Notes under the pieces: generated by a model
Seen by the model: the letters and a program-made list of their open reading frames with translations, nothing else
Databases searched by the model: none
Told to the model about the DNA's origin: nothing
Part shown: one piece after another, positions 9,137 through 20,595 of the stretch
Layout of the letters: the number at the start of each line of letters is the position of its first letter
How positions within the stretch are numbered: position 1 is the first letter of the stretch
Virus record (IMG/VR): IMGVR_UViG_3300048925_000156
Coordinates: 1-24,852 of that record
Source: a virus
Direction: 5' to 3' (one strand)
DNA: 24,852 nt
Translations under genes and position numbers: made by a program

Positions 9137-12058
9137 TTATCGCCGCGCGATCAGCTGGCGGATGGTTCCGTTTTGTTTCAGGTCGCGGACGACCAGTTCA
9201 TAGCCACCCTTCGCCCCTTGCATCGCGGCTTCCTTGACCAGGTTGACGGTGGCGTCATCCGGCGTGCCCTGAAAGCTGAAATGCTGTTCGAACACAGGCG
9301 CAGCAGCAGGCGCCGAGGAGATCGGCACGACATTGGATTTCGTGGTGGAGCCGGGAGAACCGACATAGCCGCCATCTGCGTACCCTTTCGAGTTCGCGTT
9401 CATGCGCTCGAGGAATTCCCGGGCGCCAGGCTGGCTGACCACGTCTTTGCGCACCACGAACTCACCGCCGTGCACCACTCCCTTCGGCTCGAACTTGCCG
9501 CCGTCGCCGGTGTAGCCGCCGTCAGAAAAGCCGTATTTCGAGGTGTACCCGGCCGCCGATGCGCCCAAGCTCGAAGAAGTAGCACCGGCAGATCCGGCAG
9601 CAAGCCCATTGCCTGCCGCCGACGCACCAGCACCAGCCAGACCGCTGAACAGCGTACCGAAGATGCCAACCGCCGCCTGACGTACCTGGATGCGGATCAA
9701 GTCGGCAATGATTCCGTCGGCCAGATCCTTGAACGACAGCTTTCCGGTCTTCACGAACTGGATGATGCCGTCTTCCATGTTGCTGAAGGCGTTGGTGAAC
9801 AGGCTGCGAGTTTGCCCGGCTACGTCGCGCGCCTGTTCGGAGTAGGTCTGAAACGCCGATGAGGCGCCGATCGACCAGTCCGATTGGGCTTTGTCCACGT
9901 CCGAGTAATACTGCTGCTGCATGGCGAGGCGTGTTTGCAACGCCGAGCGCAGGGCCTCGGTCTCCTGGTTGTACAGGTTGTCGCTGATTCGCCCCTCGTT
10001 GTGCTGCTGCTCCAGTGCGTCCAGTTGAGACTGGTACTGCTGCTGGATATTGAGTTGCTCCTGCAGGCGCTGCCGCTGCTGATCCCCCATGCCCATGCCG
10101 GCCAGGTTGTTGTCCAGCCCGGTTTGGGCCTTCGCCAACTGGCTTGCAAGGTTGGTCTGAAATGCGGCGAGCTTTTGCGTCTCGTCGGTCGCGATCTTCC
10201 GCAGCGCGTTTTCCTTTTCGAGCGCTGCGTTCTTCTTGAGCTGGGCGGTGATCAGTTCCTGGTTGGCCAGCAAAGACTTCTGATCAGCCGTCAGGGTCTG
10301 CTTGCCCTTGATGTCAGCGAGCTCCTGCTCCCACTTCACCAATGCCTGGCCGGCAGCGCCAAGCTTGTCGACCTCGCCCTTTTGCACGCCGATCAGTGCG
10401 TTTTGCTGCTGAAGAACAGCGTACTGCTGCTTGGCCTGGTCAAGCGCCTTGATGCCGGCGTTTTCGGTGTAGGCCTTCGGCTTTTTCTCGGCAGCCTCTT
10501 TGTAAATTGTGTTTTCGCGGATTGCCTTGAGCGCGGCGGCCTCCTGCTCAGCAGTTATTGCGTAACCTGCTGCGCGGGCTGCGCTGATGCGCTTCTCCTC
10601 GTCCTCAAGCGCCTTGTTCATCTTCTGACGCTTGGTGAAGTTTTGCTCAAGGCTTTTTTCGAAAGCCTCATATGCGGCTTGTCCATCGCGCTGGATTTGG
10701 GCGTTTCGTGCGGCAGCATCAGCTGCGTCCTGCTCAGCCTTGACCTTCTTTTCGTAGGTGGAGATTTCAGTCTCGATTGCCTTTATGCGATCTCGGGTAT
10801 CGTTGTCCTCAAACCCAGTATCAAGCAGGCTCTTCCTGTAGGCCAATTCTTGACGGAGTTTCGTAAGATCTGGGCCTTGGTTCGACTCCCTGCCAACGTT
10901 CAGAATTGCATCCCAGCCGCTTTTTGCTGCTCCAGCGAGATCATTCCAGGCTCTCTCTAGGCTGCCGAGATTCGTCTTCATCGTTGCGGCGCGCTCACCC
11001 AAAGCTTTTGCATAAGCTTCCTGAGCGATGGCTGCAGCGGCCTCCTTCTCGCCCATCTCCTGCGCCGCTCGGACCTGCTCATATACCGAAGCGGTCAAGA
11101 AGTTGTACTTGTTGTTGAGTTCAGCGACCGCCTTCACCGGGTCGTCCGCCAACCGCACAAACTCTGCGATGGTTTCTGACACTGCCTTCCCGGTCGCCTT
11201 CTCGTAGGCGATGGCGGAAGTTGCGATTTGCTCGAAGCTGGAACTGGCGATCTTCCCTGTACCGGCGAGCTGCGCAAGCGCCGCGGCAGCATCCGCCGTA
11301 GTGCCGACGGTGCCGCTGACGCGCTTGGCCATTTCAGACAGCGCGAGCGTCGTGGTGCCGACAGCATTACCGGTTGTTACGAGGGAAAGGCGGTAGGCAT
11401 CCTGCTCTTTCGAGCCTTGGTAGTAGGCCAGACCGAGCACACCTACCGCTGCCGCAGCCACGGTGAAAGGATTGACCAGGCCGAGGACATAGCCGCCCAG
11501 CGCTTTTGCTGCCGGCCCAACACCCCCAAACATATCTTTAAGCTGCCCACCTTGCTGTAGGAAAACGGTGAGTGGCGCCTGACCGCCCTGCAGCGATACG
11601 GCGATATCAGTGAACTGCGCAGGAACTCCCCGCAATGCGGCAGCTGTTGCCTTCGCCGTCATGCCGGTTTTGCCCAGATCCGAGTTGAATCGCCCGAGAT
11701 CTGCTCGCGTGGTATTGATCTTCGTTTGATATTCGGAAAAGGTATCCGCGTCGATCAAGCCAAGCTTCCGGTTTTTGGCCAGTTCCTTCTCTTGCTTGTC
11801 CAGTTCGCCCAGCTTTCGGGTGACAGGATCAATACTGCCCAGCAGCTCTTCCAACTGCTCTTTCTGCGTTTTGACCTTCCTGCCCGTTGTTTCGGAGGAC
11901 TGACCAACGCTGTCGATTCCGTCGGCCAACTTGTCCATCACCGGCTTGGCACGAAGGCCTGCCCCCTCGAGCGCCTCAAGTGCCTTTCGCGTGTCAGCAG
12001 CCTTTTGCTCAGCGTCTCGGCTGTCGATCTCCAAAACGAGGCGGGATGTCTGAGCCAT
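9137..12058 (-). CDS. H: Tail tape measure protein
   Basis: 973 residues, ATG 12058 behind GGAG. Residues 1-140 are helical. Residues ~140-345 match the lambda-type tape measure N-domain (RGVPAQFTDIAVSLQGGQ; hydrophobic 187-212 GGYVLGLVNPFTVAAAAVG). Residues ~400-720 are long Gln/Ala/Lys coiled coil. Residues 705-780 fit the lambda-family C-domain (WSIGASSAFQTYSEQARDV, FVKTGKLSFKDLADGIIADL). Then comes a Gly/Ala/Ser linker and the usual GGYTGDGGKFEPKGVVHGGE segment. It sets tail length and is ejected with DNA. At lambda's ratio of about 0.15 nm per residue, the tail would be near 145 nm. A terminator hairpin and two accessory genes separate it from its chaperones. Confidence 0.95.
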   Translation of the reverse strand: MAQTSRLVLEIDSRDAEQKAADTRKALEALEGAGLRAKPVMDKLADGIDSVGQSSETTGRKVKTQKEQLEELLGSIDPVTRKLGELDKQEKELAKNRKLGLIDADTFSEYQTKINTTRADLGRFNSDLGKTGMTAKATAAALRGVPAQFTDIAVSLQGGQAPLTVFLQQGGQLKDMFGGVGPAAKALGGYVLGLVNPFTVAAAAVGVLGLAYYQGSKEQDAYRLSLVTTGNAVGTTTLALSEMAKRVSGTVGTTADAAAALAQLAGTGKIASSSFEQIATSAIAYEKATGKAVSETIAEFVRLADDPVKAVAELNNKYNFLTASVYEQVRAAQEMGEKEAAAAIAQEAYAKALGERAATMKTNLGSLERAWNDLAGAAKSGWDAILNVGRESNQGPDLTKLRQELAYRKSLLDTGFEDNDTRDRIKAIETEISTYEKKVKAEQDAADAAARNAQIQRDGQAAYEAFEKSLEQNFTKRQKMNKALEDEEKRISAARAAGYAITAEQEAAALKAIRENTIYKEAAEKKPKAYTENAGIKALDQAKQQYAVLQQQNALIGVQKGEVDKLGAAGQALVKWEQELADIKGKQTLTADQKSLLANQELITAQLKKNAALEKENALRKIATDETQKLAAFQTNLASQLAKAQTGLDNNLAGMGMGDQQRQRLQEQLNIQQQYQSQLDALEQQHNEGRISDNLYNQETEALRSALQTRLAMQQQYYSDVDKAQSDWSIGASSAFQTYSEQARDVAGQTRSLFTNAFSNMEDGIIQFVKTGKLSFKDLADGIIADLIRIQVRQAAVGIFGTLFSGLAGAGASAAGNGLAAGSAGATSSSLGASAAGYTSKYGFSDGGYTGDGGKFEPKGVVHGGEFVVRKDVVSQPGAREFLERMNANSKGYADGGYVGSPGSTTKSNVVPISSAPAAAPVFEQHFSFQGTPDDATVNLVKEAAMQGAKGGYELVVRDLKQNGTIRQLIARR

Positions 12059-12073
12059 TATTTTCTCCAGACG

Positions 12074-12099
12074 AAAAAAAACCGCCCAAGAAAGGCGGT
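12074..12099 (-). terminator. Intrinsic terminator after 12128-12478, before tape measure
   Basis: On the minus strand ACCGCC and GGCGGT pair across a 7-nt loop, followed by eight T residues. It lies just after the stop of the secreted accessory gene and just before the tape-measure ribosome binding site. It fits the terminator of an independent accessory transcription unit, but it also blocks late transcripts. Confidence 0.8.
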
Positions 12100-12127
12100 C
12101 TGCACTGTGGTTCGTGGGCTAAGCGAT

Positions 12128-12478
12128 CTACTTGCTTGCCTCTAAGTACTGGTTCACATAATCCATAGACTCACCAATCTTCTGATTCATCGCGGTGAGG
12201 TTTTCCATTTGTTGCGGAGTAACGTGGTTGAAAAGATCTTTTGAATCAACTGATGCTGTGAATTTTTTTGCTTTGGCACGGAAGTTTTCATAGGCTTTCA
12301 ACGCTGTCTTACATGGACCTATATCGTTCTTTTTGACTGACGCCTCACATTCCTTCTGCAGATCTAACGTTACCCTCGCAGACGCAAACGCCTCGTCATA
12401 GGCAGTGGTAACCGGATCCGCAGCGATCGCAGCAGAACAAAAAAACGCACCTGCTGTGATTACGTAGATTTTCTTCAT
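12128..12478 (-). CDS. Secreted periplasmic accessory protein
   Basis: 116 residues, ATG 12478 behind GGGAGG. It starts MKKIYVITAGAFFCSAAIAA, a clear Sec signal peptide with AIAA as probable cleavage site; a Cys in it is not in a lipobox context. The mature ~96 residues are helical and Lys/Glu/Asn-rich, with two cysteines (KECEAS and GPCKTA) that could form a disulfide. It is unlike any tail protein, is more AT-rich than its neighbours, and has its own terminator at 12074-12099. It splits G-T from the tape measure. A role at the envelope, such as blocking superinfection, is inference. The family is not recognised. Confidence 0.78.
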   Translation of the reverse strand: MKKIYVITAGAFFCSAAIAADPVTTAYDEAFASARVTLDLQKECEASVKKNDIGPCKTALKAYENFRAKAKKFTASVDSKDLFNHVTPQQMENLTAMNQKIGESMDYVNQYLEASK

Positions 12479-12624
12479 GCGCCCTCCCTGAGTAATGGCA
12501 GCAATCTACCACCATCCGCAGGAAGCACCAAAGCGGGCTGTACGAATTCCCAGTAGTTCGAATGGCGGAACACGTAGTAGCGTTCGGCCGCCAACCAACA
12601 AGACGAGTTATCAAGGAGATGTCT

Positions 12625-13101
12625 GTGAGCGACTACGCCATACCGGAAGGAAAAAAATTCGTAACCATAAACTTCGCTAGACCAGATGGAGAAGTCTACA
12701 CCAAGCCACCTGGCCGGCCGGTGGTCGTAGCGGCACTTCGGTACGATCCTGAGCATGGGAGTGGCCCAAGAGAGATTTCTGGATACAAGCTAACTTATGC
12801 TCTGGTCGATACCGGAGCCGACCACAACTACGCTACTCCGGCCTTGATTGCAGAGGCTGGCTGTCCGCAGATCGGGATCGCCAGGACTCGCACTGCCAGT
12901 GGGTGGATCGAGTCGACTCAACACACAGCTCACATATTCTTACCTGAAGCGGGCAAACAGTTCGAAACAGACGTTTTTTCATCACCGCTTGTAGACGAAG
13001 GCGGCCTGGGTGAACCCCTCATCATCGGCGTGCTTGTCATCAAAACAGGAAGACTGGTCATGGATTTCCAGGCCAGCATCTACCGCCTCTACGTCGACTA
13101 A
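12625..13101 (+). CDS. Retropepsin-like aspartic protease, accessory gene
   Basis: 158 residues from GTG 12625, chosen because AAGGAG (12613-12618) lies six bases upstream; the frame is open back to 12562, and an ATG at 12619 is too close to the site. Residues 58-71 read YALVDTGADHNYAT, the DTGA active-site turn of retroviral-type aspartic proteases. Residues 132-148 (LIIGVLVIKTGRLVMDF) fit the second hydrophobic-hydrophobic-Gly strand and psi-loop. One copy per chain implies a homodimer. It is antisense to the late operon and divergent from the secreted protein at 12128-12478, with 146 nt between starts. Substrate is unknown. No signal peptide or transmembrane segment is seen. Confidence 0.8.
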   Translation: MSDYAIPEGKKFVTINFARPDGEVYTKPPGRPVVVAALRYDPEHGSGPREISGYKLTYALVDTGADHNYATPALIAEAGCPQIGIARTRTASGWIESTQHTAHIFLPEAGKQFETDVFSSPLVDEGGLGEPLIIGVLVIKTGRLVMDFQASIYRLYVD

Positions 13102-13114
13102 ATCAGCCCTTACA

Positions 13115-13139
13115 GAGCTTTCATACATGATGAAAGCTC
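13115..13139. repeat. Inverted repeat, 10-bp perfect stem after protease gene
   Basis: GAGCTTTCAT (13115-13124) pairs exactly with ATGAAAGCTC (13130-13139) around a 5-nt loop. It begins 13 nt after the protease stop, where a plus-strand terminator is expected, but only GTTCGATT follows, so termination would be weak. Nothing else is firmly supported in 13102-13283. Confidence 0.6.
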
Positions 13140-13283
13140 GTTCGATTAAGGCTGGTGCGGCTAGTTCTATACGCTCCGCCGGGACGGATCGCTCGCCAGG
13201 GTGTTCCATCCTGATTGATCCAACTCTACCCACGATGTCCAAGCTCATAGTCTCATCCCACTCAAACTCCAATTCACGTAGTT

Positions 13284-14014
13284 TTATTCTTCTGCGCCTG
13301 CCGCGAGACACACCGCATCAAGCGCAAACATCACATCGTCCACTTCGTCGCGCGGCAATGGCGAAGGATGCGACTCCAGCCAGTCGGAGATCTCCCGCGC
13401 CGAAAGCGGCAGCGGGAACGCCCCAGCCATGCCGGCGATGTAACGGCGCCCGCGAGACACGTTGCGATAGAGGTTCAGCAAGTAGGCGGTGATAGGGTCG
13501 TTCTCCGGCTCATCCGGTACCGCCAGCTTCAGGCGCGCGTAGACTGCCCGCCGCTTTTCGCTTTCCCCGCCCCACTCTTGCTCCCACTCGAAGCGGCAGA
13601 CGGCTTTCCCACTGACTCGGCTCGCTCCTCAGCGGCTTCATTGGCTGCTGCGGCGCCCTCGCGCAGGACGAAAACGAAGAACTCGATGTTGGTTTCCAGC
13701 AGCTCGGCGGCGATCGCCGGACTGTACTTGATAGGGTTGCCGTCGGCGTCCAGCACGCCCTCCCAGTCCTTCACAATGAAGTGACTGAGCAGCATCGAGT
13801 GGTTCTGGTGCTCGGTTTTCTCACCGGCGACCACGCCCACCTGCCCCTCTTCAAACCGTGCATCGTTGCGCTGAATGCGGCGGCGCATGCGTTCCAGAGC
13901 CACCTGATACTCAGGATTGTCGATGCCGGCCAGCAGCACCTTGGTGTCCTTGTCGAAGTTCGCCCAGCGCTCGCCGGTGACCGCCGGCTTCTTTTTGCCC
14001 AGTTGCAGAGCCAT
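13284..14014 (-). CDS. Tail assembly chaperone G-T, -1 frameshift product
   Basis: The zero frame gives 137 residues up to the G-GGA-AAG slip site at 13610-13604. After a -1 shift, reading resumes at 13604 for 106 residues and ends at 13284, giving about 243 residues. The shifted frame is open without interruption and begins KAVCRFEWEQEWGGESEKRR, running through PITAYLLNLYRNVSRGRRY and ISDWLESHPSPLP. Lambda makes G and G-T from an identical heptamer, and the ratio matters for loading tube subunits on the tape measure. The T part lacks a ribosome binding site of its own and has only an internal ATG near 13481. The fusion is inferred from sequence, not shown. Confidence 0.85.
13529..14014 (-). 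CDS. G: Tail assembly chaperone G (unshifted product)
   Basis: 161 residues, ATG 14014 behind GAGG. It begins MALQLGKKKPAVTGERWANF, with a folded helical domain (KVLLAGIDNPEYQVALERM, SMLLSHFIVKDWEGVLDADG) and a low-complexity Ser/Gly/Ala tail (SAASSGSKSGAGKAKSGG). It sits between the tube and tape-measure genes, the invariant location of the chaperone pair in siphophages. The slip site for G-T lies at codons 135-137. The Ser/Gly tail is exactly the region read in another frame as T, which explains its odd composition. Confidence 0.88.
   Translation of the reverse strand: MALQLGKKKPAVTGERWANFDKDTKVLLAGIDNPEYQVALERMRRRIQRNDARFEEGQVGVVAGEKTEHQNHSMLLSHFIVKDWEGVLDADGNPIKYSPAIAAELLETNIEFFVFVLREGAAAANEAAEERAESVGKPSAASSGSKSGAGKAKSGGQSTRA
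13604..13610 (-). other. Programmed -1 frameshift slippery heptamer
   Basis: On the minus strand the bases are GGGAAAG, phased G-GGA-AAG in the zero frame (13610 is the third base of codon GTG). This is the same heptamer and phase as in lambda G-T. Both codons re-pair well after slipping (GGA to GGG, AAG to AAA). A second G-run, GCG-GGG-AAA, 40 nt downstream is not in a favourable phase. Confidence 0.85.
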
Positions 14015-14094: not shown

Positions 14095-15255
14095 TTATGC
14101 AGTGACGGTGATCGCCGCCGTGCTGGTTTTGGTGACGTCCGACACGCTGGTGGCGGTGATCGTCGCGGAGCCGGCGGAAACGCCGGTGACCAGGCCCGAA
14201 GAGCTGACAGTGGCAACGCTCGGCGCCGAACTGGTCCAGGTGACATTCTGTGCGGCTTCGGCCGGCAGAGCCGAGGCAGTGAGCTGACGAGTCGCAGCCA
14301 CCGCAATCGACGCGGTCGCAGGCGCCACCGCTACGCTGGCCACCGGCACAAACGGAACGCGGGTAATGGTCGGGCTGACCTTTGCAACGGTGTAGTTCAG
14401 CGTCACCTCGATCAGGTCGCGCTTGCCGCCATTCGGAAGCTCGCCGTCCACTTCCACAGCTGGGAAGTTGAAGGTGTACTTGTTGCCCAGGCTGTCGGTG
14501 ATCGGGAACACGACGCCGATTGGCGCGCGGGTGAAGGTGTTCTTCCAAATCTCCCAGGCCCGCTTCGACCATGCCAGCGTGATGCTGCCGGTGATGGCCG
14601 CCTCGGTGGCGATGTGTGCACCCGGGCCGAGACTTTCAGAACCGAGGCAGCGCTGCGTTTGAAGGCTATTGTCGAGGTTGACGGTCATGGCCGACACGCA
14701 GGCCACGCCTTCCAGCGATTGGCCGTTCACCAAGATCGTGCCGACGTTGTTGTTCGACAGGAACGGGGTGGTGGTCGGCGCGTTCGGCGAAACGACGATC
14801 GAGGTCTCGCTGTCGGCGTAGTCCAGGCACGCCATGTTGAAGGTGGCAGTGATCTTGCCGTCGGACGGGATATCGAGCGCGAAGGTCGAGACGTGCGCCC
14901 CCTTGAACACACCATAGACGCCGACGTCGTCGTAGCCCTTGGCGATGCTGAAGGTGTGGCGGGTGTCGCCAACGCTCAGCACGTTGCCGGTCCAGTTGCC
15001 GTAAAACGCGGCTTCCAGCAGCTGATCGAACGAGCCGAACGAGAATTCAGCCGTCAGGTCGCCGCCGATATCGATGCTAGTAGCCACCGAGCCTTGGCTC
15101 AGGCGGGTGTCGGTGATCTCGTCGCTGACCTGGGTGTTTACGGTCGGGGTCAGCGCGTTGCCAGTGAGGCGCAACGTGTCCCAATTGCCGGCTGGGGTAA
15201 CGCCTGGCGTCACCTCGGGGATGATGTGTGAAACGACTTTTGCGCCAGAGCTCAT
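14095..15255 (-). CDS. Major tail tube protein with C-terminal BIG2 Ig-like domain
   Basis: 386 residues. Residues 1-300 form the tube domain: VSHIIPEVTPGVTPAGNWDT, LTAEFSFGSFDQLLEAAFYG and KYTFNFPAVEVDGELP, all typical of siphophage tube proteins of this group. Residues 303-385 are a bacterial Ig-like group 2 domain (SVAVAPATASIAVAATRQL, WTSSAPSVATVSSSGLVTGV, SAGSATITATSV) that would project from the tail surface, as in lambda gpV. Such domains are thought to bind cell-surface sugars weakly. It starts at ATG 15255 behind GGAGG; a terminator hairpin lies 24 nt upstream. A plus-strand frame of similar length covers it, but is a composition shadow. Confidence 0.92.
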   Translation of the reverse strand: MSSGAKVVSHIIPEVTPGVTPAGNWDTLRLTGNALTPTVNTQVSDEITDTRLSQGSVATSIDIGGDLTAEFSFGSFDQLLEAAFYGNWTGNVLSVGDTRHTFSIAKGYDDVGVYGVFKGAHVSTFALDIPSDGKITATFNMACLDYADSETSIVVSPNAPTTTPFLSNNNVGTILVNGQSLEGVACVSAMTVNLDNSLQTQRCLGSESLGPGAHIATEAAITGSITLAWSKRAWEIWKNTFTRAPIGVVFPITDSLGNKYTFNFPAVEVDGELPNGGKRDLIEVTLNYTVAKVSPTITRVPFVPVASVAVAPATASIAVAATRQLTASALPAEAAQNVTWTSSAPSVATVSSSGLVTGVSAGSATITATSVSDVTKTSTAAITVTA

Positions 15256-15368: not shown

Positions 15369-15914
15369 ATGGATGCAGAAACTTGGAAACTAGTCGTTGA
15401 TATCTCGCAGGCTACGGCTGCGCTAGCTGGTGGGCTTTCAGCCATTTTCGCTGGATGGGCATTGCGGAGTACAAACAGCGCCAGGGCTGACGCTGTGCTG
15501 CTGGGGCAAGCAGCGCTGAACCTAGAACGATCCTATGAAGCCCTTTTCGGGGACGGATATGATGACAACAACCCAAGGTATGAACCAAATGATTGGCTGC
15601 TATCCGCGAGGCTTATTACTGACTTTGTGGCCGTGCAGAGAAAGATCAAAAGCAAGCTCACCAAACTAGAATGTCTCAGCCATGAGGAACACTGGCGAAT
15701 GCAGTTTGCGAAGAGAATAGATTCGCTAGAGCAAAAGAATTCAAATTACTTTCAAAACAGGACTGAACCTGTAGAAAAATTGGCCGTGCGCGCAGTTTAT
15801 TTGTTTGCCACTCCGAACCCAATCGGCAACCTAGAAAGACTACAGTCTCGCGATGTACAGCCTGCATCCGGGATAACAGCAGCATGGCCGAATGGAAAAA
15901 CCTATTCCACCTGA
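15369..15914 (+). CDS. Membrane-anchored protein of unknown function, accessory gene
   Basis: 181 residues, ATG 15369 nine bases after AGGGAG. One transmembrane helix is likely at residues 13-32 (SQATAALAGGLSAIFAGWAL), followed by RSTNSARAD and a soluble helical domain with Trp/Tyr/Phe-rich stretches (EPNDWLLSARLITDFVAVQ, EEHWRMQFAKRIDSL). The family is not recognised. It reads against the late operon and its stop lies 3 nt from the stop of the tail terminator gene at 15918. Codon use is more AT-rich than in neighbouring tail genes, as expected for an insertion. A single anchor plus cytosolic domain would fit superinfection exclusion or abortive-infection proteins, but that is only inference. 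Confidence 0.75.
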   Translation: MDAETWKLVVDISQATAALAGGLSAIFAGWALRSTNSARADAVLLGQAALNLERSYEALFGDGYDDNNPRYEPNDWLLSARLITDFVAVQRKIKSKLTKLECLSHEEHWRMQFAKRIDSLEQKNSNYFQNRTEPVEKLAVRAVYLFATPNPIGNLERLQSRDVQPASGITAAWPNGKTYST

Positions 15915-20199: not shown

Positions 20200-20595
20200 A
20201 TGGCAGATCCAATCGCTCCTGAAAATCAAGCCGTTATCAATGCACCATCTTCTGAGGCGACCTTCAGCAAAACCACCGTCGCCAAACTAAATCTCACTCA
20301 GCTGCAGTTGACAGACGCAAAAGCCAGCATGATTCATGACATGTCCACACAACGACTAGAGCCAGAGGCGATGCTGGAAAAGATCATGCAGGTTCAAAAG
20401 GTTCAAGTAACTCTCGATACCCTGATCGACTCAGTCAGTTCGACTTCAACTCTCAACACCCCTTTCACTGATGCAGAAGCCCAAGGAATGCGCGATTTAA
20501 AGAAGGAGCATGACCTTACAGACCATCAACTGGCCACGATCTACGGAACAAACCAGACCAAGGTCAATCGGGTTCTCAATAACCAAACGAAGTGA
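20200..20595 (+). CDS. Small helix-turn-helix protein, accessory gene
   Basis: 131 residues, ATG 20200 five bases after GAGG. Residues 1-50 are Ala/Ser/Thr-rich and polar; 52-80 are helical (EAMLEKIMQVQKVQVTLDTL). Residues ~105-127 (DLTDHQLATIYGTNQTKVNR...) have classic HTH spacing, A-x3-G in the turn and V-x-R in the recognition helix. It is antisense to the head operon, 18 nt from the MuF stop, and has its own promoter with a palindrome over the -35. Autoregulation or control of phage genes is inference. Whether this short HTH suffices for DNA binding is uncertain, and the family is not recognised. Confidence 0.78.
   Translation: MADPIAPENQAVINAPSSEATFSKTTVAKLNLTQLQLTDAKASMIHDMSTQRLEPEAMLEKIMQVQKVQVTLDTLIDSVSSTSTLNTPFTDAEAQGMRDLKKEHDLTDHQLATIYGTNQTKVNRVLNNQTK

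What the first reader, a model, noticed from the sequence alone, without database searches (positions are those of the whole stretch)
12625..13101. Retropepsin-like protease gene inside a phage tail operon
The product has DTGA at residues 62-65 and LIIGVLVIKTGRLVMDF near the C-terminus, in antisense orientation between the tail chaperones and the tape measure. Retropepsin-like proteases are not part of the standard siphophage tail set. It could act on host or incoming-phage proteins, or with the divergent secreted protein.
Basis: partly seen in the sequence, partly recalled or inferred. Interest (0 to 1): 0.7.

Follow-up and report, generated by a model that had tools for sequence, protein, structure and literature searches.

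The report
Retropepsin-like protease as prophage reverse moron
A dormant Pseudomonas virus carries, backwards among its tail genes, a gene for a small relative of the HIV protease, behind a DNA control element that also stands before dozens of unrelated cargo genes in other such viruses; it is probably made while the virus sleeps, to change or protect the host cell.

Summary
Window 12625-13101 (+) encodes a 158-aa protein with D62-T-G-A. The DTG is invariant in all 29 unique relatives found, and the AlphaFold model matches retropepsins best (Rickettsia APRc, EIAV, FIV, Ddi1, HIV; Z 9-10). It is not a tail gene. It is a 'reverse moron': an accessory gene with its own control region, inserted antisense in the late operon. 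At this same site phage phiPSA1 has nothing, Aurca01 has a different small antisense gene, and the window and L002 have the protease. Relatives lie at other sites in Pseudomonas, Enterobacter and Rhizobiales prophages; in Salipiger the gene overlaps an S24/HTH repressor gene. Upstream sits a conserved element, CCAGTA-N17/18-GTAGTAGCGTTRTGCC, that precedes about 35 clusters of small ORFs in over 100 prophage contigs, 88 of 92 against the surrounding coding strand. I found no record of this element. The enterobacterial version has a different leader, shared with the HK97/HK022 reverse morons. Most likely it is a lysogen-expressed homodimeric protease acting on incoming phage or host proteins. 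Dimerisation, activity, expression and substrate are untested.

The parts
12625..13101 (+). Retropepsin-like aspartic protease gene, 158 aa, GTG start; Asp62 of DTGA is the predicted catalytic residue
   Evidence: ORF and translation; conservation; model and fold matches
12531..12592 (+). Conserved reverse-moron control element (exact boxes CCAGTA-N18-GTAGTAGCGTT at 12550-12584); probable promoter or activator site
   Evidence: Flank alignment of relatives; one match in the window and none in 100 shuffles; profile hit; found in at least 120 viral contigs
12613..12618 (+). Shine-Dalgarno-like AAGGAG, six bases before GTG 12625
   Evidence: Sequence
13115..13139 (+). Inverted repeat GAGCTTTCAT-acatg-ATGAAAGCTC after the stop codon; possible 3' end of the transcript. 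No T run follows, and it did not count as a terminator-like site
   Evidence: Sequence; only partly shared by relatives; not listed
12517..13275 (+). Approximate extent of the inserted cassette (G+C 0.53 against 0.595 for the window)
   Evidence: Comparison with the unoccupied site of phiPSA1; borders approximate
9137..12058 (-). Flanking late gene: tape measure protein
   Evidence: Pfam and PHROG matches
13284..14014 (-). Flanking late genes: tail assembly chaperone (13529-14014) and the following small ORF 13284-13481 (phrog_1189)
   Evidence: PHROG matches

Best explanation
The gene is a reverse moron: an accessory prophage gene inserted antisense into the late operon with its own control region. 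Shown by sequence comparison: (1) the product has retropepsin motifs and a predicted retropepsin fold; (2) the cassette sits at a site that is unoccupied in one relative and holds another gene in a second; (3) its upstream element is shared with many unrelated small antisense genes. Inferred: (4) the element is a promoter used in the repressed prophage, with boxes 17-18 bp apart and transcription starting near GTTRTGCC; (5) the protein is made in the lysogen and dimerises in the cytoplasm, so that two Asp62 residues form one active site; (6) it cuts one or a few target proteins. The likeliest targets are proteins of superinfecting phages (exclusion), then host proteins (lysogenic conversion). 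I put protease activity at about 0.75 and exclusion as its purpose at about 0.35-0.4.
For: Retropepsin matches of the model. DTG in 29/29 relatives. Unoccupied, otherwise occupied and protease-occupied states of one site. Variable sites elsewhere: either side of the tape measure, head or minor-tail regions in Enterobacter, where a ~770-bp cassette keeps ~94% identity between unrelated flanks, antisense to head genes in Rhizobiales and overlapping an S24/HTH repressor gene in Salipiger, a position suited to expression in lysogens. Shared element; orientation 88 of 92 opposite. Precedent: Tab of JBD26, an antisense moron with its own promoter that defends the lysogen (PMC10884400).
Against: No expression, dimer or activity data. 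The protein is below the Pfam cut-off. No sigma-70 match in the element region, so promoter function rests on conservation, spacing and position. Tab itself does not use the element. The control element is absent from two Pseudomonas relatives, L040 and L041, and L040 shows a TIR-domain gene and no phage gene nearby.
Confidence: 0.7

Rival explanations
1. It is a virion-assembly protease that processes tail or head proteins of its own phage and happens to be encoded on the other strand.
For: It lies within the late region; phages do use assembly proteases, such as the prohead protease in the Rhizobiales prophage.
Against: Relatives with the same tail operon lack it (phiPSA1) or have another gene there (Aurca01); the site varies between phages; antisense orientation; no match in 50,697 phage records.
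Confidence: 0.06
2. It is a lysogenic-conversion or prophage-control enzyme that cuts a host protein, or a repressor or antirepressor, rather than an exclusion factor.
For: The Salipiger relative overlaps an S24/HTH repressor gene by ATGA; the host genus already has a regulatory retropepsin-like enzyme, RimB (PMC11957791); morons often change host traits (PMC7067206).
Against: No substrate known; only one of the loci examined is next to a repressor gene.
Confidence: 0.35
3. It is a catalytically dead retropepsin-fold binding protein.
For: No activity data; similarity to Pfam protease models is below the curated cut-off.
Against: DTG kept in 29/29 unique relatives, some only 22-30% identical to the window protein.
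Confidence: 0.1
4. The shared upstream element is a recombination or insertion site, not a promoter.
For: It sits at the 5' border of many different inserted genes; how morons are acquired is unknown (PMC4378225).
Against: Seen only on the 5' side of the genes, close to their start codons; fixed 17-18 bp box spacing with free spacer sequence fits promoter recognition. I did not search systematically for a matching 3' site. Both roles could hold.
Confidence: 0.15

Closest known systems
HK97 gp23 ('reverse moron product') and HK022 gp23 (srb, 'moron gene product')
   Same: Single small gene, antisense in the tail operon, behind its own leader; the Enterobacter relatives of the window protease carry a homologous leader.
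   Different: The record annotation gives these products no enzymatic function; the Pseudomonas leader has another sequence.
Tab (gp31) of Pseudomonas phage JBD26
   Same: Antisense gene in the late operon with its own promoter, protecting the lysogen (PMC10884400).
   Different: No recognisable copy of the element in JBD26; reported to block virion assembly and not described as a protease.
APRc of Rickettsia conorii (PDB 5c9f, 5c9b, 5c9d)
   Same: Bacterial retropepsin-like protease; top or near-top structural match.
   Different: About 15% identity; not described here as phage-borne.
RimB of Pseudomonas
   Same: Retropepsin-like endopeptidase in the same host genus (PMC11957791).
   Different: Works with RimA and RimK on ribosomal protein RpsF; no direct sequence comparison was made here.
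Enterobacter WP_023330226.1 and WP_247952912.1, 'retropepsin-like aspartic protease'
   Same: Homologous (about 32% identity), also antisense to phage genes.
   Different: Different leader; annotated by name only, no function shown.

Membership tests
Retropepsin-like aspartic proteases (clan AA, A2-like) | Asp-[Thr/Ser]-Gly catalytic motif | tested here: met
   DTG in 29/29 unique relatives; invariant in a 17-row alignment
Retropepsin-like aspartic proteases (clan AA, A2-like) | Hydrophobic-hydrophobic-Gly motif near the C-terminus | tested here: met
   LIIG; G135 invariant; motif in 28/29
Retropepsin-like aspartic proteases (clan AA, A2-like) | Single-lobe retropepsin fold | tested here: met
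   Predicted model only, pLDDT 82.5; leading matches are retropepsins
Retropepsin-like aspartic proteases (clan AA, A2-like) | Homodimer with the active site between the two subunits | not testable with these tools
Retropepsin-like aspartic proteases (clan AA, A2-like) | Peptide cleavage that depends on the Asp | not testable with these tools
   Needs a bench assay
Pfam PF13650 Asp_protease_2 | Score above the curated cut-off (24.3 bits) | tested here: not met
   17.7 bits; subfamily member L079 23.2 bits. Not filed as a PF13650 member
Phage moron / reverse moron | Gene inserted between two genes that are adjacent in a relative | tested here: met
   phiPSA1 unoccupied, Aurca01 another gene, window and L002 protease; the window also has a forward-strand secreted-protein gene in the same interval
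Phage moron / reverse moron | Base composition unlike the neighbours | tested here: met
   Cassette G+C 0.53 against 0.59 (tape measure), 0.63 (tail tube) and 0.595 (window)
Phage moron / reverse moron | Own promoter and terminator | tested here: inconclusive
   Conserved promoter-like element upstream, but no sigma-70 match and no terminator-like site after the gene
Phage moron / reverse moron | Antisense to the late operon ('reverse') | tested here: met
   Window; element-bearing loci 88 of 92
Phage moron / reverse moron | Expressed from the repressed prophage | not testable with these tools
RimB | Sequence relation to RimB, work with RimA/RimK on RpsF | not tested
   No RimB sequence was compared; Pfam listed only Asp_protease_2, gag-asp_proteas and AFOR_C
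Superinfection exclusion / anti-phage system | Protects lysogens against other phages | not testable with these tools
   Needs plaque assays; no PADLOC match

The most novel reading that the evidence does not exclude
Pseudomonas prophages share an undescribed, dedicated promoter class (CCAGTA-N17/18-GTAGTAGCGTTRTGCC with an upstream ATCCA-N3-TGGAT half-site pair) that switches on reverse morons in the lysogen and doubles as a homology handle for swapping cargo genes; retropepsins are among its commonest cargo and act as a protease-based exclusion or conversion system.
Probability: 0.4. Interest if true: 0.78.

Novelty: new variant of a known kind. Interest (0 to 1): 0.6.

Why it matters
Morons are the usual carriers of prophage-encoded traits but are hard to recognise, and how they are acquired has been called mysterious (PMC4378225). 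A 40-bp motif that marks dozens of unrelated reverse-moron families would let them be listed by pattern search, would define a set of genes expressed in lysogens, and would suggest how cargo is exchanged. A retropepsin as common cargo, with ClpP-like cargo behind the same element, would make targeted proteolysis a moron activity that can be tested directly by changing one aspartate.

Tried and rejected
Rfam search of 14 element loci: no match. RNA reading of the element: RNAalifold on 47 diverged copies gives -0.26 kcal/mol and no compensatory pairs; the upstream inverted repeat does not covary beyond shuffles (z 1.9 and 0), so it is treated as a DNA site. Sigma-70 promoter: none found at 11900-13600. 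Link to Tab of JBD26: no element found there. Partnership with the secreted protein 12128-12478: no homologues beside the protease. PADLOC, NCBIfam and PHROGs: no match for the protease. A search with the short Salipiger relative found no viral contig. The Pseudomonas element was not found in E. coli genomes. Literature searches for retropepsins in prophages, reverse morons and the literal motif gave nothing relevant; only open-licence papers are searchable, and Tsao 2018 on Pseudomonas morons is not held. Juhala 2000 was not looked up.

Full report
1. Observation. The ORF runs from GTG 12625 to the stop at 13101 on the + strand, with AAGGAG six bases before the start. An ATG at 12562 in the same frame lies inside the conserved control element and is unlikely to be used. 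The product has D62-T-G-A and LIIGVLVI...LVMDF as reported. Pfam sees Asp_protease_2 below its cut-off (E 0.006); PHROGs, NCBIfam and PADLOC see nothing.

2. Family. Close relatives (48-78% identity) are in five IMG/VR contigs and in Pseudomonas japonica; distant ones are in a Rhizobiales genome, Salipiger and other Pseudomonas genomes. A protein search of plasmids found two Enterobacter phage-plasmids annotated 'retropepsin-like aspartic protease', and from these 24 further viral contigs. None is in 50,697 phage records by tblastn. In an alignment of 17 diverse members the invariant residues are F17, P32, V33, A59, L60, D62, T63, G64, G135, L144 and M146. Of 29 unique ORFs, all keep AL-x-DTG-[AC]. 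A second subfamily (L079) reaches RVP_2 and RVP models weakly.

3. Fold. AlphaFold2 with that alignment gives pLDDT 82.5 and pTM 0.78. The leading solved matches are retropepsins: FIV, Rickettsia APRc and HTLV by Foldseek (13 matches at E below 0.001, all retropepsins), and APRc, EIAV, Ddi1, FIV and HIV proteases at Z 9-10 by VIA-align. A dimer could not be modelled.

4. Place. The gene lies between the chaperone-region genes (13284-14014, -) and the tape measure (9137-12058, -). Related phages give a same-site comparison. phiPSA1 has only about 60 bp between the chaperone-region gene and gp03, and its left junction GGCAGCAATCTACCAYCATC matches the window at about 12497-12516. Aurca01 has at this point the same control element followed by a different antisense gene (MAKQPPKSGSAWTATEIS...). 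The window and L002 have the element and the protease. Elsewhere the gene lies on the other side of the tape measure (L004, L006), beside head-region or minor-tail genes (Enterobacter), and antisense to head genes in Rhizobiales. In Salipiger its ATG overlaps the stop of an S24/HTH repressor gene. The Enterobacter cassette is about 770 bp and keeps ~94% identity where the flanks share nothing. This fits the definition of a moron quoted in PMC4378225, and antisense it is a 'reverse moron', the term used in the HK97 record.

5. Control element. Aligning the 5' flanks of the Pseudomonas-type genes showed a block more conserved than its setting: CCAGTA, 17-18 free bases, GTAGTAGCGTTRTGCC, with a half-site pair ATCCA-N3-TGGAT upstream. 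The window's own copy departs in the last bases (GTAGTAGCGTTCGGCC). Among loci fetched by protein similarity, 10 of 12 distinct Pseudomonas-type genes have the element upstream; at L039 and L042 it is some 350-500 bases away. Mechanical ORF calling after the element gives 35 clusters, 18 with two or more members: the largest is a family without a Pfam name (29), the second is retropepsins (13), and others hold BRCT and ClpP-like domains. The element points against the majority coding strand in 88 of 92 cases, and annotated phages (AUS531phi, phiAH14a, OQ658365) and P. aeruginosa plasmid-prophages show it before small genes antisense to the tail operon. Spacer length is 18 in 98 and 17 in 10 copies while spacer sequence is free, and there is no consensus RNA fold: this looks like a DNA site with two boxes at promoter spacing. 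The conserved boxes were partly fixed by the search pattern, so their conservation is shown without bias only. No sigma-70 match was found, so which sigma factor or activator reads it is open. Enterobacter relatives have a different leader (a terminator facing the late strand, then a conserved block), homologous to those before HK97 gp23, HK022 gp23 and ES18 gp25 and also present before a second small gene in some of the same prophages. So the protease family rides on each host group's own moron leader.

6. Mechanism. Shown: predicted fold, catalytic motif, insertion, shared element. Inferred: expression in the lysogen, dimerisation, cutting of specific proteins. Exclusion of incoming phages is favoured slightly, because Tab, a characterised antisense moron in a Pseudomonas prophage, defends the lysogen (PMC10884400). 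Host modification is nearly as likely, since the host genus already uses a retropepsin-like enzyme, RimB, as a regulator (PMC11957791). A tail-assembly role is unlikely.

7. Novelty. Retropepsin-like proteins in bacteria and reverse morons are both known kinds. The combination, and above all the shared Pseudomonas element with many cargo genes, I could not find described, within a library that lacks most subscription papers.

Noticed in passing
window 15369-15914 (+): A second antisense ORF (181 aa, G+C 0.49) between the tail tube gene and the next late gene, next to a terminator-like repeat facing the late strand; L002 has only about 70 bp there. Probably another reverse moron without the element; no Pfam match.
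   Followed up: partly
window 20200-20595 (+): A third antisense ORF (131 aa, G+C 0.48), also preceded by a terminator-like repeat facing the late strand (ATAAAAAAACCGCCAGACGGCGGT).
   Followed up: partly
window 12128-12478 (-), terminator-like site 12079-12101: Small protein with a likely signal peptide (G+C 0.44) followed by its own terminator-like site; phiPSA1 has an unrelated protein in the same slot behind similar upstream DNA, so this slot also exchanges cargo.
   Followed up: partly
L156 (element-driven ORF) and L010:9063-9614 (+): ClpP-like proteins as antisense cargo: one behind the Pseudomonas element, one in the Enterobacter phage-plasmid close to the retropepsin gene.
   Followed up: partly
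L022:3795-4170 (also L025, L030): A second copy of the enterobacterial leader in the same prophage, before a different small gene (MSNIRYIEGLKL...).
   Followed up: partly
L077 and 28 further loci: The most frequent cargo behind the Pseudomonas element is a protein family starting like MAQYASDTVKYL, without a significant Pfam match.
   Followed up: no
L068 (element-driven ORF, 207 aa): Cargo protein MTSLLFYTDDNEATVVTDTLIATK... that by eye recalls proteasome-like Ntn hydrolases; no Pfam match, so only a lead.
   Followed up: no
L040:63-1950: A relative of the protease without the element, beside a TIR-domain gene in a Pseudomonas chromosome.
   Followed up: no
window 14095-15255 (-): The tail tube protein carries a C-terminal Ig-like Big_2 domain.
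   Followed up: no
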